Below are positions 3,143-62,924 of a stretch of DNA of 64,000 nt, piece by piece. Within the stretch, counting starts at the first letter, position 1. Every line of letters starts with the position of its first letter. The DNA comes from Campylobacter concisus UNSWCS (lineage in GTDB: Bacteria > Campylobacterota > Campylobacteria > Campylobacterales > Campylobacteraceae), in the NCBI RefSeq assembly GCF_000466685.1, contig NZ_ANNG01000019.1, positions 1-64,000 of the forward strand, read 5' to 3'. Both the position numbers and the translations under genes were made by a program. The notes beneath the pieces are model-generated. The model saw only the letters and a program-made list of their open reading frames with translations, ran no database searches and was not told where the DNA came from.

Positions 3143-4057
3143 ATGCAAGTTGAGACATTTGGCGTTTTAGTCGTTGTTTTGGTCATTTTTGCATTTTTGT
3201 TTTTAAAAGCTGGCATCAAGATCGTATCGCAAGCAGATAACTTGCTGATCGAGCGACTTGGTAAATTTCACAAGGTGCTTGACGGGGGATTTCACATCAT
3301 AATCCCATTTGTCGATCAGATAAGGGCGATCATAACTATAAAAGAGCAGCTTGTTGATATCACAAAACAGCAAGTCATCACAAAAGATAATGTTAATATT
3401 AGCGTCGATGGCATCGTCTTTTTAAAGGTATTTGACGCAAAAATGGCGGTTTATAACGTAGATAACTACAAGCGCGCCATTGCAAATTTAGCCATGACAA
3501 CGCTTCGTGGCGAGATAGGAGCGATGAATCTTGACGATACACTAAGCTCACGTGACCGCCTAAATGCCGCACTTCAAGTGGCTCTTGGTGATGCAGCTGG
3601 CAACTGGGGCGTAAAGATCATGAGGGTTGAAATTTCTGAAATTTCTGTCCCACTTGGTATAGAAGAGGCGATGAATATGCAGATGAAAGCTGAGCGCGAA
3701 AAACGTGCGATCGAGCTAAAGGCCTTGGCTGAAAAAGAGGCGCTAATACGCAACGCAGAGGCGCTAAAACAAGAAAAGGTGCTTCAAGCAGAGGCGATCG
3801 AGCGTATGGCTGATGCGAAAAAATATGAGCAAATCGCCATCGCAACGGCTCAAAAAGAGGCTATGGATATGATAAATGACAGCATGAGCAAAAACGCAAA
3901 TGCGGCTGAATTTCTGCTAGCACGTGACAGGGTCGGGGCATTTAGTGAGCTAGCTAAAAACAGCTCAAAAGATAAAATTTTAGTTCCTTACGAGGCGACT
4001 GAGCTAATTGGCTCGCTTAGCGTTTTAAAAAATTTCTTAGCTAAGGATAAGGCGTGA
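3143..4057 (+). CDS. SPFH/band-7 membrane protein (stomatin/QmcA-like)
   Basis: A 304-residue protein with one N-terminal membrane helix (residues 7-27) followed by a band-7 domain (about 30-190: ERLGKFHKVLDGGFHIIIPFVD, the TKDNVNISVDG strand, the Y-x-V-x-N-Y-x-AI-x-NLAMTTLR segment) and a coiled coil rich in Glu, Ala and Lys (about 190-260). This is the architecture of bacterial QmcA/stomatin proteins that form membrane microdomain scaffolds. The NfeD-like gene directly downstream overlaps it by four bases, the classic SPFH-NfeD pairing. AAAGGAGAG precedes the ATG. Confidence 0.88.
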   Translation: MQVETFGVLVVVLVIFAFLFLKAGIKIVSQADNLLIERLGKFHKVLDGGFHIIIPFVDQIRAIITIKEQLVDITKQQVITKDNVNISVDGIVFLKVFDAKMAVYNVDNYKRAIANLAMTTLRGEIGAMNLDDTLSSRDRLNAALQVALGDAAGNWGVKIMRVEISEISVPLGIEEAMNMQMKAEREKRAIELKALAEKEALIRNAEALKQEKVLQAEAIERMADAKKYEQIAIATAQKEAMDMINDSMSKNANAAEFLLARDRVGAFSELAKNSSKDKILVPYEATELIGSLSVLKNFLAKDKA

Positions 4058-56728: not shown

Positions 56729-57362
56729 TCACGCTCTCTCGCCAACTGCAGTGAAGCGCTTTTGGATAAATTTCTTATTTTTTAGCTCATCAATGATCGC
56801 AAGCGCAAGGTCTGCGTAGCTTATGTAGCTCTCATTTTTTTGAGTTTAGTATGAGATTATCCCCGCCAAGCACGTATTTGCCCGTGCGAGCGCCGTTTGC
56901 GTCGTAGTCACCTGCTGGACTTACATACATCCAAAGCACATTTGTGCTACCTTTTAGCTCAAAATATGACTCCGCCGTAGCCTTTGCCACGCCCATATAT
57001 GCCGATGGGAAGTCTGGCGTATCCATGAGCATAGTGCCTTTGCTATCAACAAATAATGTGCCAGCGCCAAGAGCTACGATGAGCCTTGTGTTAGTGCCTT
57101 CTAGTAAATTTACTAGGTGAGCGGCCACTTTTTTGTTAGAAAAGAAGGTTTATAACAACCAAACGGCAAATGCGCTGATAACCGTATCAAAGCCTGTTAG
57201 ATCAGCTTTTGTAGGCTCAAAAATATCTTTATAAATGACCTTTATGCTCGTATTTTTATACTCTTTGTTTCTAACGATCGCTGTGACGTCGTAACCTTGT
57301 TTTAGCGCCTCATTTACTAAATTTACGCCGCTTTTGCCGTTTGTGCCTAAGATTGCTATTTA
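56729..57362 (-). pseudogene. broken NAD(P)-binding oxidoreductase (NmrA/YwnB-like)
   Basis: On the minus strand the reading from about 57362 to 56729 gives an atypical SDR of about 210 residues: IAILGTNGKSGVNLVNEAL (nucleotide loop), NTRLIVALGAGTLFVDSKG, MYVSPAGDYDANGARTGKY and YISYADLALAIIDEL. It carries three lesions: the expected start reads ATTTAA instead of ATGAAA; an in-frame TAA follows AFAVWLL near 57150; and a run of seven A (T7 at 56835-56841) shifts the frame just before the last 36 residues, where six A would restore it. The middle part alone is an open frame of 98 codons. Each lesion is visible directly; loss of function is inferred. Confidence 0.8.
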
Positions 57363-57379
57363 AATTTTGCTTTTTAAAT

Positions 57380-58790: not shown

Positions 58791-59700
58791 GAGCGTTCTT
58801 AGAAATTCGTTTTTTCTAATTTTCATGTTTATGATAGTTGAGGCCGTTTTTGGCTTCGTTTCAAACTCGCTTGCGCTTATTAGCGACGCATTTCACATGC
58901 TCTCAGACGCTGCCGCGCTATTTTTGTCGCTGGTTGCTTTTAAGATCGCAGAAAAAAGGGCAAATTTACAAAAGACCTTTGGCTACAAAAGGGTCGAGAT
59001 CATCGCCGCTTTCATAAACGCCATCGCTATTATCGCACTTGCTGTTTTTGTCGTAGTCGAAGCTGTCATAAGGCTTTTTAATGAGCCAGAGATAGAGGCT
59101 AGAACAATGCTTTTTGTTAGTATTTTGGGGCTTGTGGTAAATTTGATCGTAGCCATTTATATGCATAAAAGCGCTGATACAAAAGAAAATTTAAACATGA
59201 AAGGTGCTTATTTGCACGTGCTTGGCGATACACTTGGCTCAGTTGGCGCCATCGTCGCGGCGCTTCTTGTGATGAAATTTAACTTCACGCAGGCCGATAG
59301 CATCGCAAGTATCTTTGTCTCGCTACTCATCATAAAAAGTGGCGCTAGCTTGCTAAAAGATAGCTTTAATATCCTGATCGAAGCCGTGCCGCTTAAGCTT
59401 GATACGGATGAAATTTTAAGCGTTATAAAGGGCGTAGATGGCGTTAAAATCGTGCATGACCTGCATATCTGGGCGATAAATGCTGGCACAAATGCGCTCA
59501 TAGCCCACGTGGTGGTGGATGACGCGCTAAGCGTGGCTGAAATTTCAAAGATGATAAAGCACATCGAACACGAGCTTTCTCACGCAGGCATCGGTCACGT
59601 CACGCTTCAGTTTGAGAGCGAGAGCCTTGGACATAAAGACGATCTCATCTGCGAGCTAAAAAGCGCGCATAAAGACGAGCATTTTGGACATCATCACTAA
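58777..59700 (+). CDS. cation diffusion facilitator (zinc/cobalt efflux, CzcD-like)
   Basis: A 307-residue exporter. Six helices, with the metal site residues in SDAFHMLSDAAALF (helix II) and YLHVLGDTLGSVGA (helix V), then a cytoplasmic domain with VHDLHIWAINAGTNALIAHVVV and a His-rich end (EHFGHHH). Expected to export Zn or another divalent cation against protons. It overlaps the ABC membrane gene by 14 bases, hence one transcription unit, and ends in a 4-base convergent overlap with the restriction gene. Confidence 0.9.
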   Translation: MMHNKSVLRNSFFLIFMFMIVEAVFGFVSNSLALISDAFHMLSDAAALFLSLVAFKIAEKRANLQKTFGYKRVEIIAAFINAIAIIALAVFVVVEAVIRLFNEPEIEARTMLFVSILGLVVNLIVAIYMHKSADTKENLNMKGAYLHVLGDTLGSVGAIVAALLVMKFNFTQADSIASIFVSLLIIKSGASLLKDSFNILIEAVPLKLDTDEILSVIKGVDGVKIVHDLHIWAINAGTNALIAHVVVDDALSVAEISKMIKHIEHELSHAGIGHVTLQFESESLGHKDDLICELKSAHKDEHFGHHH

Positions 59701-62700
59701 CCTGCTTTATTAACGACCTTTTTGGTTGCTTCTATCTTTTTGTCAGCCCAAAGCACGACGTCTTTTATAACTAGCTTTTCGATAGCTTTTATGAAATCTT
59801 TTATAAATTTGTAGTTAATCTTACCATCTTCACTTATTGGAAGTAAAATTTTTGTCTCATTAAATAATCTTTCAAAGTCACGAACTAAGTGACTTTGATA
59901 AAAATTTTGTTTTTTATTAAGCCAACATATAAAATATTGAGCTATGTCTTTATTAAAATTATCAAATTTCGGATAAATTGTTTTCGTAAATTGACCTGCG
60001 TAAAAATCCTTTTTCATATAGAAAAATTGCATTCCAAGCATCCCAACAGCTAGCGAATTGCCGTTAATTTTGTGTTTTTCATCTAAATAATCAACATAAC
60101 CTGCTATTCCATTATTTAAAACTGTTCGCGTAAAATATGGGTATTCACCATTATCGCTAAAATGAAAACTTTCTTTGTTGAGTTGTGGGTTTGAAACAAC
60201 CAAAAACAAATCACCAATTTTAAATTTCTTCGCTACCCCCCCCCGTCGGCTAAATTCATCGAATTTTGTAAGGGCGGATTTTTCGGCATCAGTTAATTCA
60301 TAATTTTTAAGTCCAGTTACCGCAAGACACGCGTCAAATTTTTTTGTATATTTTTGCTCTTTTTCTTTAACATATTCTCGTTCAAGCTCTTCAATAAAAT
60401 TTTCCATAAATAAAAAATCTATCTTGTCGCCTTTTGTTGGTAAAATAACTTTTTCTTGTTTTAATGTTTCTTTTTTTGGATAATTAGAATAACCTCCATA
60501 ATTTAACGCATTTATAGCTGTAGCGATAAAAAGTTGAGCACGCTTAGACCAATTTGGCATAGGCATAGCTAAAATATTATTTGCTAAAACAAATTTTTCT
60601 GAATGATATGTTACAGTTCCAGAATATTCACCACGAGTTGAAATTGTTAAACATTCTTTAAATATCTCGTTTTGTGGCAACTTGTCATTTGTATAATAAT
60701 TTACACCATTATTTGTAGTAATTCCACTTATAACTGCAACTGAGTTAATATTTGGTTTGTCATATCGTGTTATATAATTTTTGTTTTTGCCATAAATCCA
60801 AGTTTTTTCAACATCAAATAAATCACCTATGCGATATTCTTTAAATTTTCCACCATGCGCTTTAAAATCATTTTCTAAATTTGCAATTCGTTGACTGATG
60901 ATAGTTCTTTTACTGGGACTTTCCTTTTTAAGAATTTGCAACACTTCCCAGCTTAGATAGTCACCTACGGTTCTTTTAAAATCTATTAAAGTTGGTATAG
61001 TATCGACTGGTCTAGATTTATTCCAGTCAGCACCGTTATTTGGATCAATAGTATCCTCATAGTATTCGTCTTCGCTAAAAATTATAAGTTTGCTTTTACC
61101 AAACCTCACCAAATTTACAAGCTCATCATAACGCTCTTTCGCATTGTCTGTATCTTTTAAATTATTACTCGCTTTTTTGCGATTCGAGCGTGTGTAGCCA
61201 TCCTTTGAAAAGTCGATAAATTTTACCATTTCGTCTTTTTCGTGTTTTTCACCAACTTTAAAAACATAGATGTTTGTTTGCACGTTTGATTTACCAAAGA
61301 AAAGGTCAGTTGGCATTTTAATACTTGCAACAAGGGTATTTCGTTCAAGAATTTTTTTATTTATCTCTTTTGCCTTACCATTACCTGCTGAATTTTGTAT
61401 AATGATTGCAGCATAACCCTTACTCATCATACTTAAAGCAGTCTCTACAAAGACCATGCCATTTCCAGGTGCAGAATAAGGTGGGTTTAGCACAAAAGCT
61501 GTTGCAGGAAATTTTTCTTTAACATTACCAAAACCATATTCGCCACTAAAATCACTTAAACTATCCTTGTTTAAGATGTTGGAGCTTCCATCGCCCATCA
61601 TTATCATGTTTAAGACTGCAAGCATATAAATAGATGGAAGAATTTCAAGTCCTAAAAGTTGTTCTGCCTTTATCTTTAGCTCTTTTTGCTTAAATTCTTC
61701 AGGTGATTTTATATTGTCTTTAGCATCTTTTATCATTTCGTTCATAGCAGCAACCAAAAGTCCAGCTGAGCCTGTGGCAAAATCCCAAACATAACTATCT
61801 TTATTTACTCGTGCAAGGCGTACTAAAAGCGTAGCAACATATGAAGGAGTGAGAACTACATCGTTTTGCTTGTCTTGAGAAAAACCAAGCCATGAATACA
61901 TTTGGTTAAATAGTTTTCCAGTAAAATCAGTCGTAAGTCCGATTTTATAGTAAATTCCTAGGTCATCTACTATTTTAGAAAATAATCGTTTTAACTGTGT
62001 CTCGCCGTTTGTTACTTTATTGATATTTTCAGATAAGATTGTGTTTGATAGTGTGCGAATAATGAGATCTTTTTTGTCTGTTGGAATATTTTTACAGTCC
62101 AAAAATGCTTTTATCTTTCTCGTTAAAATTTCACCATCAGTGTTGCCTTGCTCTGGTGAAGATTTTAGTTCATGTTTTTCAAGTGGAGCAACCTTACCAG
62201 GTATGCCAAGAGTAGCGATGATCGAAGCTGCAACAAGATAAACTCTGTCATTCTCACCAATTCCTTTTTCATAAATATCCTTATTTAGTTTTACTAAGCT
62301 GGCGTCAATCTCTTTTTCACGCTTTTGTTTTATCTTTTCAAGTTCATCGTATGATAAATTTAGATATTTTAGGCTTTTTGCAAATTCATCAAAATTTGAT
62401 ATTTTTAAAAATGAAAGGTCGCTAAAGTCACCAACTTTTTGACCTATACCTAAATTTGATTTTGAAACATAATAGACTCCGATTTTTGTTTGAAGTTTGC
62501 CTTTGTTGTCTTTAGAGCCAGTAACGCCAATGGCGATGATGTCAGTATAGCTTGTGTGGTGAAGCAGAGCATTTGCATAGTGGATCGCTCCATTTACAGC
62601 GTATTCTTTTATATTTTTAAAATTTGGTTCATTTTTGGTGGTGCGATTTTCTACATTGCCATCGGCGTCTAGTTTTTCTAACCTATCTTCATAGCCTTTG

Positions 62701-62924
62701 TATTCAATCAAGACAGGATAAAAATTTAAGCTCTTATCTTGTAAGAGTAGTTTAGCATCAGGTTTGTTGCCACCTTTGCCACCTCCCTTAGAGGCATATT
62801 CTTGTAAGGCATTATCTATCTCACTATTTAAGCTCTCTTGTTCCATTTTAATATCAAGTTTATATGATTTTAGCTCTGAATTTATCATATATGCCACATT
62901 TGGTTCTACGCTTTGGATTGCCAT
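59697..62924 (-). CDS. Type IIG restriction-modification enzyme, phase variable
   Basis: A 1075-residue fusion with nuclease, methylase and two specificity domains. PD-(D/E)xK nuclease: PD55-56 and EYK74-76. N6-adenine methylase: DFATGSAGLL (motif I, near 380) and NPPYS (motif IV, near 479). Two Type I S-like target-recognition domains: about 690-860 (EYRIGDLFDVEKTW) and about 900-1060 (KFKIGDLFLVVSN), so a split recognition sequence is expected. A run of nine G on the coding strand (C9 at 60236-60244, near residue 894) separates them; the present length keeps the frame open. The gene is more AT-rich than its neighbours, suggesting acquisition. Confidence 0.9.
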   Translation of the reverse strand: MAIQSVEPNVAYMINSELKSYKLDIKMEQESLNSEIDNALQEYASKGGGKGGNKPDAKLLLQDKSLNFYPVLIEYKGYEDRLEKLDADGNVENRTTKNEPNFKNIKEYAVNGAIHYANALLHHTSYTDIIAIGVTGSKDNKGKLQTKIGVYYVSKSNLGIGQKVGDFSDLSFLKISNFDEFAKSLKYLNLSYDELEKIKQKREKEIDASLVKLNKDIYEKGIGENDRVYLVAASIIATLGIPGKVAPLEKHELKSSPEQGNTDGEILTRKIKAFLDCKNIPTDKKDLIIRTLSNTILSENINKVTNGETQLKRLFSKIVDDLGIYYKIGLTTDFTGKLFNQMYSWLGFSQDKQNDVVLTPSYVATLLVRLARVNKDSYVWDFATGSAGLLVAAMNEMIKDAKDNIKSPEEFKQKELKIKAEQLLGLEILPSIYMLAVLNMIMMGDGSSNILNKDSLSDFSGEYGFGNVKEKFPATAFVLNPPYSAPGNGMVFVETALSMMSKGYAAIIIQNSAGNGKAKEINKKILERNTLVASIKMPTDLFFGKSNVQTNIYVFKVGEKHEKDEMVKFIDFSKDGYTRSNRKKASNNLKDTDNAKERYDELVNLVRFGKSKLIIFSEDEYYEDTIDPNNGADWNKSRPVDTIPTLIDFKRTVGDYLSWEVLQILKKESPSKRTIISQRIANLENDFKAHGGKFKEYRIGDLFDVEKTWIYGKNKNYITRYDKPNINSVAVISGITTNNGVNYYTNDKLPQNEIFKECLTISTRGEYSGTVTYHSEKFVLANNILAMPMPNWSKRAQLFIATAINALNYGGYSNYPKKETLKQEKVILPTKGDKIDFLFMENFIEELEREYVKEKEQKYTKKFDACLAVTGLKNYELTDAEKSALTKFDEFSRRGGVAKKFKIGDLFLVVSNPQLNKESFHFSDNGEYPYFTRTVLNNGIAGYVDYLDEKHKINGNSLAVGMLGMQFFYMKKDFYAGQFTKTIYPKFDNFNKDIAQYFICWLNKKQNFYQSHLVRDFERLFNETKILLPISEDGKINYKFIKDFIKAIEKLVIKDVVLWADKKIEATKKVVNKAG
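60236..60244 (-). repeat. G9 contingency tract
   Basis: Nine consecutive G on the coding strand within the restriction-modification gene, the only G/C run of eight or more I noticed in the window. Campylobacter G tracts of this length are known to slip. With eight G the next codon is TAG; with ten G a TAA follows within about six codons. Confidence 0.85.

What the first reader, a model, noticed from the sequence alone, without database searches (positions are those of the whole stretch)
60236..60244. Phase-variable switch between the two recognition domains of a Type IIG enzyme
Seen: nine G on the coding strand lie exactly between the first and second S-like recognition domains. Eight G create an immediate TAG; ten G lead to a TAA about six codons later. 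Thus slippage would leave nuclease, methylase and the first recognition domain intact and remove the second. Inference: the switch could change the recognised sequence or turn the enzyme off, altering the methylome and phage restriction between cells.
Basis: partly seen in the sequence, partly recalled or inferred. Interest (0 to 1): 0.75.

Follow-up and report, generated by a model that had tools for sequence, protein, structure and literature searches.

The report
G-tract switch between DNA-recognition domains
A run of nine Gs sits exactly at the hinge between the two DNA-recognition domains of a bacterial restriction-modification enzyme, where copying slips would add or drop the second domain; related enzymes carry such repeats behind many of their recognition domains, so this looks like a real switch, probably of the DNA sequence the enzyme recognises.

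Summary
On the minus strand a 1075-aa gene (59697-62924) encodes PD-(D/E)xK nuclease, N6-adenine methylase and two TRD-CR specificity units in one chain (BcgI/BsaXI-like Type IIB, also called IIG). Nine G (60236-60244) encode the hinge between the CR1 helix and the first TRD2 strand. 8G gives TAG at once; 10G gives TAA five codons later. The next-longest G/C run in the window is 5; about 0.01 runs this long are expected.

Comparative data support a real switch. The same junction holds 9G (in frame), 8G (out of frame), 10G, interrupted tracts (in frame), or an unrelated GA repeat in other species. In 30 family loci, 20 of 21 repeats lie between TRD-CR units. In the 8G allele of G014, the out-of-frame TRD2 is still under purifying selection. 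Some relatives have three TRD-CR units with repeats between them; a slip at the second only adds or drops the third, so these cannot be simple on/off switches.

Whether the truncated enzyme is active is not shown. Published BsaXI and NgoAV truncations make a new-specificity switch slightly more likely than plain OFF. Known principle, new variant. Within-strain tract variation and methylomes are missing.

The parts
59697..62924 (-). Single-chain restriction-modification-specificity gene, 1075 aa
   Evidence: ORF; PADLOC REase_MTase_IIG 2-672 (E 1.3e-237) and Specificity_II 693-1073 (E 1.3e-37)
62697..62762 (-). PD-(D/E)xK nuclease motif, residues P55 D56 ... E74 Y75 K76
   Evidence: alignment A1; Pfam VRR_NUC only sub-threshold
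61137..61913 (-). N6-adenine methylase domain (residues 338-596; motif I DFATGS, motif IV NPPY)
   Evidence: Pfam N6_Mtase 2.3e-23; profile match to BsaXI RM 8w0p 8e-12
60417..60851 (-). TRD1 (residues 692-836)
   Evidence: S-unit HMM; AlphaFold2
60243..60416 (-). CR1 helices (residues 837-894), fully kept in 8G and 10G states
   Evidence: helices 837-870 and 879-894 in the model
60236..60244 (-). Poly-G tract, 9 G, in frame
60233..60235 (-). TAG that stops translation when the tract has 8 G
60220..60222 (-). TAA that stops translation when the tract has 10 G
59814..60233 (-). TRD2 (residues 898-1037), lost in 8G/10G states
   Evidence: Pfam Methylase_S 899-1052
59700..59813 (-). CR2 helix (residues 1038-1075)

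Best explanation
The G tract is a slipped-strand contingency repeat placed at the hinge between the modules RM-TRD1-CR1 and TRD2-CR2. With 9 G the full enzyme recognises a bipartite asymmetric site. With 8 or 10 G the chain ends cleanly after CR1; the truncated RM-TRD1-CR1 chains most likely pair through their CR1 helices, so that two TRD1 domains read a new, palindromic two-half-site target, which is methylated and restricted by the same chain. The tract also serves as a seam at which TRD units are exchanged. Shown: tract, frames, domain boundary, variation among species, conservation of an out-of-frame TRD2, recurrence of unrelated repeats at the same hinge. Inferred: slippage within the strain, activity and palindromic specificity of the truncated form, effect on phages and gene expression.
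For: Frames and hinge position. Same hinge holds 9G in frame in L002, L004, L006 and L055, 10G in frame in L070, and 8G out of frame in L005, L010 and L072; these out-of-frame alleles keep both halves open. G009 and G014 carry almost the same enzyme (RM 99.7%, TRD1-CR1 97.8%, TRD2 93.3% identity) but one has G5ATGG in frame and the other 8G out of frame; dN/dS of the out-of-frame TRD2 against three in-frame alleles is 0.07-0.14. GA/AG dinucleotide repeats at the same hinge in L071, L075, L078 and L068. 20 of 21 repeats in 30 family loci are in inter-unit gaps that make up 2.75% of the sequence. Three-unit arrays carry repeats between units; in L068, L069 and L073 the second tract is out of frame and leaves a normal two-TRD enzyme, which an on/off switch does not explain. 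BsaXI (RM)2S: deleting TRD2-CR2 gave an active enzyme with new palindromic specificity AC N5 GT (PMC9159934). NgoAV: poly-G slippage between the S halves swaps GCAN8TGC for GCAN7STCA (PMC9577141). H. pylori IIG enzymes JHP1272/HP1353 change specificity by homopolymer length (PMC3936762).
Against: No reads or second isolate of this species were available. BsaXI has separate RM and S chains; TstI/AloI-type single chains form tetramers (PMC4027205), so truncation may behave differently. In H. pylori JHP1422, TRD1 alone gave no palindromic methylation. The hinge may host G runs simply because TRD units start with a conserved W-G (TGG GGN) and a Gly linker is tolerated. Several alleles carry other lesions (L002, L004, and a G in the nuclease motif of L006), so loss of activity is tolerated.
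Confidence: 0.5

Rival explanations
1. Plain on/off phase variation: with 8 or 10 G the truncated enzyme is unstable or inactive, and cells lose this methylation and restriction until the tract slips back. The hinge is used because a Gly-rich linker tolerates the repeat.
For: C. jejuni Cj0031 works this way: 9G on, 10G off, tract ahead of the variable TRD regions (PMC4889913). Conserved W-G at unit starts supplies a seed for G runs, as in the KWGGV-type junctions. L002 and L004 carry other disabling lesions.
Against: On/off would tolerate a repeat anywhere, yet only 1 of 21 lies outside inter-unit gaps; in three-unit arrays the second repeat cannot switch the enzyme off; BsaXI TRD1-CR1 is active in vitro.
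Confidence: 0.37
2. The repeat is mainly a recombination seam for exchanging TRD units between genes and species; frame switching is a by-product.
For: L006 and L010 share 90% DNA identity from the end of RM to 15 nt past the tract, although the RM domain of L010 is only distantly related (33% to the window's, where L006 is 83%); L077 joins unit 1 of L067 to the leader of unit 3 at the tract. The window's TRD2 type occurs in positions 1, 2 and 3 elsewhere.
Against: The CR1 sequence alone gives homology; TRDs also change position among tract-less relatives; an out-of-frame allele is conserved.
Confidence: 0.08
3. Sequencing error, or a decaying gene with a chance G run.
For: Homopolymers are error-prone; the assembly is a draft of 177 contigs.
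Against: The window allele is in frame over 1075 aa; the same tract recurs in independent assemblies; a non-homopolymer GA repeat occupies the same place; dN/dS is low.
Confidence: 0.03

Closest known systems
NgoAV Type I system of Neisseria gonorrhoeae (PMC9577141)
   Same: Poly-G tract between the two halves of an HsdS-type specificity protein; slippage adds or drops the second half; both forms active with different motifs
   Different: Type I with separate HsdR, HsdM and HsdS; here nuclease, methylase and both TRDs are one chain; activity of the short form untested here
BsaXI / BcgI Type IIB enzymes (PMC9159934, PMC11997821)
   Same: Methylase fused to a PD-(D/E)xK nuclease, TRD1-CR1-TRD2-CR2 specificity part; engineered TRD1-CR1 is active on a palindromic site
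   Different: BsaXI S is a separate chain, truncation was artificial, no switch tract reported
H. pylori Type IIG JHP1272 / HP1353-HP1354 (PMC3936762)
   Same: Homopolymer length in a IIG enzyme alters specificity by adding a C-terminal domain
   Different: MmeI-like single TRD plus a small extra domain; not two HsdS-type TRDs
C. jejuni Cj0031 Type IIG (PMC4889913)
   Same: Poly-G phase variation of a IIG enzyme, 9G on; locked alleles with interrupted tract (4G-A-4G)
   Different: TaqI-like architecture; loss of both activities predicted when the frame shifts
cj1051c (CjeI) phase-variable group of PhasomeIt (PMC6321876)
   Same: Reported phase-variable RM group in C. jejuni, C. coli, C. concisus and C. 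fetus
   Different: Tract position not given in the passages read; sequence relation to the window gene not tested
DOMO domain movement and three-TRD JHP1422 (PMC3077401, PMC3936762)
   Same: TRDs move between positions 1 and 2; two or three TRDs per S subunit
   Different: No simple-sequence repeat behind each unit was found in the passages read

Membership tests
Type IIB / BcgI-BsaXI-like RM enzymes (IIG subclass) | N-terminal PD-(D/E)xK nuclease fused to an N6-adenine methylase | tested here: met
   PD55-56...E74xK76, NPPY480-483 in A1; N6_Mtase; PADLOC IIG; profile match to BsaXI RM
Type IIB / BcgI-BsaXI-like RM enzymes (IIG subclass) | Specificity part TRD1-CR1-TRD2-CR2 | tested here: met
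   two S units by HMM; AlphaFold2 and Foldseek to HsdS and BsaXI S chains
Type IIB / BcgI-BsaXI-like RM enzymes (IIG subclass) | Cuts on both sides of a bipartite site | not testable with these tools
   biochemistry needed
SSR-mediated phase-variable (contingency) locus | Repeat far longer than chance inside a reading frame, with frameshift on slippage | tested here: met
SSR-mediated phase-variable (contingency) locus | Repeat number varies among related genomes while the out-of-frame part stays conserved | tested here: met
   8-10 G and interrupted tracts between species; dN/dS 0.07-0.14 for the G014 allele
SSR-mediated phase-variable (contingency) locus | Repeat number varies within one strain | not testable with these tools
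   one assembly per species, no reads
NgoAV-type specificity switch | G tract between the two TRD-CR halves | tested here: met
NgoAV-type specificity switch | Type I architecture with separate HsdR/HsdM/HsdS | tested here: not met
   single 1075-aa chain, no translocase domain found
NgoAV-type specificity switch | Short form active on a palindromic motif | not testable with these tools
   methylome needed
cj1051c (CjeI) group | Orthology to Cj1051c | not tested
   no named C. jejuni record was compared

The most novel reading that the evidence does not exclude
In this family the TRD-CR units end in slippery repeats, so that a tandem array of recognition units is read out to a variable length: one, two or three TRDs, each giving a different target sequence, while the same repeats act as joints for shuffling the units. 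The window gene is the simplest, two-unit version.
Probability: 0.4. Interest if true: 0.72.

Novelty: new variant of a known kind. Interest (0 to 1): 0.52.

Why it matters
A restriction enzyme that changes, rather than loses, its target by a one-base slip would remodel the methylome and phage barrier of single cells reversibly without leaving them undefended. Because nuclease, methylase and recognition share one chain, both activities would switch together. The naturally arranged tract variants of this family make the question directly testable, and TRD-CR units with a repeat at the joint would be a natural parts list for enzyme engineering.

Tried and rejected
A single alignment of RM and S rows (A3) misplaced S rows into the RM region; the full-length model is therefore weaker (pLDDT 79.9), and a second model of the specificity part alone was used (pLDDT 90.7). 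Plasmid and phage collections gave only distant relatives or the RM part alone. A start codon for separate translation of TRD2 just after the tract was looked for and not seen in the 8G alleles; L003 has an ATG there, but in frame. Natural fixed one-TRD enzymes were looked for as support for an active short form; short S hits in L136, L134 and L113 look like broken or frameshifted genes rather than clean one-TRD enzymes, so no support either way. Fixed-offset sliding identity misled where CR1 lengths differ, and that script stopped with an error; it was replaced by BLAST. Two earlier scripts also stopped with errors and were rerun (redone in 24 and 41). No paper describing a repeat behind the TRD units of a Type IIB/IIG enzyme was found in the searches made, which cover open-access papers only.

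Full report
WHAT IS THERE. The minus-strand gene 59697-62924 encodes 1075 residues. Residues 2-672 match PADLOC's Type IIG nuclease-methylase model (E 1.3e-237) and 693-1073 its Type II specificity model (E 1.3e-37); Pfam finds N6_Mtase at 338-596 and Methylase_S twice. The RM half has PD...ExK (55-56, 74-76) and NPPY (480-483). A profile of its family matches the Type IIB enzyme BsaXI and Type I HsdM chains in the PDB. AlphaFold2 of the specificity half (mean pLDDT 90.7) gives TRD1 - CR1 helices - TRD2 - CR2 helix; Foldseek returns Type I S subunits and the BsaXI S chain (E-values significant, global TM-scores low, about 0.3-0.4, plausibly because the domains are oriented differently).

THE TRACT. 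Nine G encode the last two bases of codon 894, codons 895-896 and the first base of 897. In the model, helix 879-894 ends and strand 898-902 begins on either side of it. 8 G reads straight into TAG; 10 G reads a few codons into TAA. Either truncation keeps RM, TRD1 and all of CR1. In 64 kb the run-length spectrum of G/C is 1-5 and then this single 9; expectation for >=9 is 0.012, and only 6.6% of local Gly codons are GGG and 4 of 476 Arg codons are CGG.

THE SAME PLACE IN RELATIVES. Searching 48 genomes of the genus and 153 of the family gave loci with: 9G in frame (L001, L002, L004, L006, L055); 10G in frame (L070); 8G out of frame with both halves open (L005, L010, L072); interrupted tracts in frame (L003 G5ATGG, L009 G4AG4); GA/AG repeats (L071, L075, L078, L068); G6 out of frame (L008). 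Ten relatives of the family, nearly all with split RM and S genes, have no repeat. Among 30 family loci, 20 of 21 G/C>=8 or dinucleotide>=5 repeats lie between TRD-CR units, in 2.75% of the sequence (binomial 1e-30, which overstates significance because the loci are related; the G and GA types are at least two origins). In 80 further relatives, mostly from other phyla, the RM part is 70-77% identical, RM and S are nearly always in different, overlapping frames, and only one, from a Bacteroidota MAG (L114), has a G run of 8 or more; it is a G10 at the same junction, in frame.

NOT DECAY. G009 and G014 have nearly the same enzyme (RM 99.7%, TRD1-CR1 97.8%) but a locked in-frame and an 8G out-of-frame tract. 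The out-of-frame TRD2 of G014 has dN/dS 0.07-0.14 against in-frame alleles. It has therefore probably been translated through most of its history.

ARRAYS. L067, L068, L069 and L073 have three TRD-CR units. In L067 both tracts (G9, G10) are in frame over all three. In L068 and L069 (G12) and L073 (G8) the second tract is out of frame, so the protein stops right after unit 2 and is an ordinary two-TRD enzyme. In L069 the first GA repeat is shortened and in frame. L077 runs from unit 1 through its tract directly into the leader that stands before unit 3 in L067; BLAST confirms the join at the tract.

EXCHANGE. The window gene and L004 share TRD1-CR1 (85%) but not TRD2 (41%); the window gene and L005 share TRD2 (93%) but not TRD1 (41%). 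L006 and L010 share DNA at 90% from the end of RM to just past the tract although their RM domains belong to different branches (83% and 33% identical to the window's). The window's TRD2 type is found at position 1, 2 or 3 in other species. This is the domain movement (DOMO) known from H. pylori (PMC3077401).

MECHANISM. Three readings were weighed. Specificity switching is favoured because the repeats respect the TRD-CR unit boundary, because the second repeat in three-unit arrays cannot be an on/off switch, and because precedent exists at each level: BsaXI TRD1-CR1 without TRD2 cuts at AC N5 GT (PMC9159934), NgoAV does it by poly-G in nature (PMC9577141), and H. pylori IIG enzymes switch specificity through homopolymer length (PMC3936762). 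On/off switching as in Cj0031 (PMC4889913) remains close behind, because no activity of the short form has been measured and because a W-G start of each unit gives an easy seed for G runs. A pure recombination seam or an artefact is unlikely.

NOVELTY. Poly-G phase variation of a Campylobacter IIG enzyme is known, and PhasomeIt reports a cj1051c group that includes C. concisus (PMC6321876); poly-G between two TRDs is known in Type I. What appears new, within the open literature searched, is the repeated placement of repeats of different sequence behind the TRD-CR units of a Type IIB/IIG family, including three-unit arrays.

Noticed in passing
L067, L068, L069, L073 (genomes G080, G089, G117, G118): Specificity genes with three TRD-CR units and simple repeats (G9+G10, GA9+G12, G12, G9+G8) between the units
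   Followed up: partly
L077 3548-3591 against L067 5821 and 6511: Unit 1 joined to the leader of unit 3 exactly at the G tract, i.e. gain or loss of a whole TRD unit at the tract
   Followed up: partly
L114 4435-4444: In-frame G10 between TRD units of a Bacteroidota MAG (Saccharicrinis sp.), an apparently separate occurrence
   Followed up: partly
L002 (G027), coding-strand positions about 3616-3668: Two compensating one-base indels in A runs of TRD1 with an in-frame TAA between them, so this 9G allele is truncated elsewhere
   Followed up: no
L006 (G039), nuclease motif: ExK reads LIGYKG instead of LIEYKG; the nuclease is probably dead while methylase and TRDs are intact
   Followed up: no
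L004 (G030), coding-strand positions about 1500-1520: Frameshift near codon 36-40 ahead of the nuclease motif
   Followed up: no
L013 646-654 (G043): 9G tract near the N-terminus of another IIG relative, again followed by TAGCGAG
   Followed up: no
own genome C10, C18, C21, C31, C41, C44: Nine further G>=8 tracts, one splitting two open frames (C31:45564), one near the 3' end of an acyltransferase-like frame (C31:52848)
   Followed up: partly
own genome C28:5505-8786: Type I hsd-like locus with a two-TRD S gene and an extra S fragment of 201 aa
   Followed up: no
window 56830-57370, minus strand: NmrA/SDR-like NAD(P)-binding gene that looks broken by an internal stop
   Followed up: no
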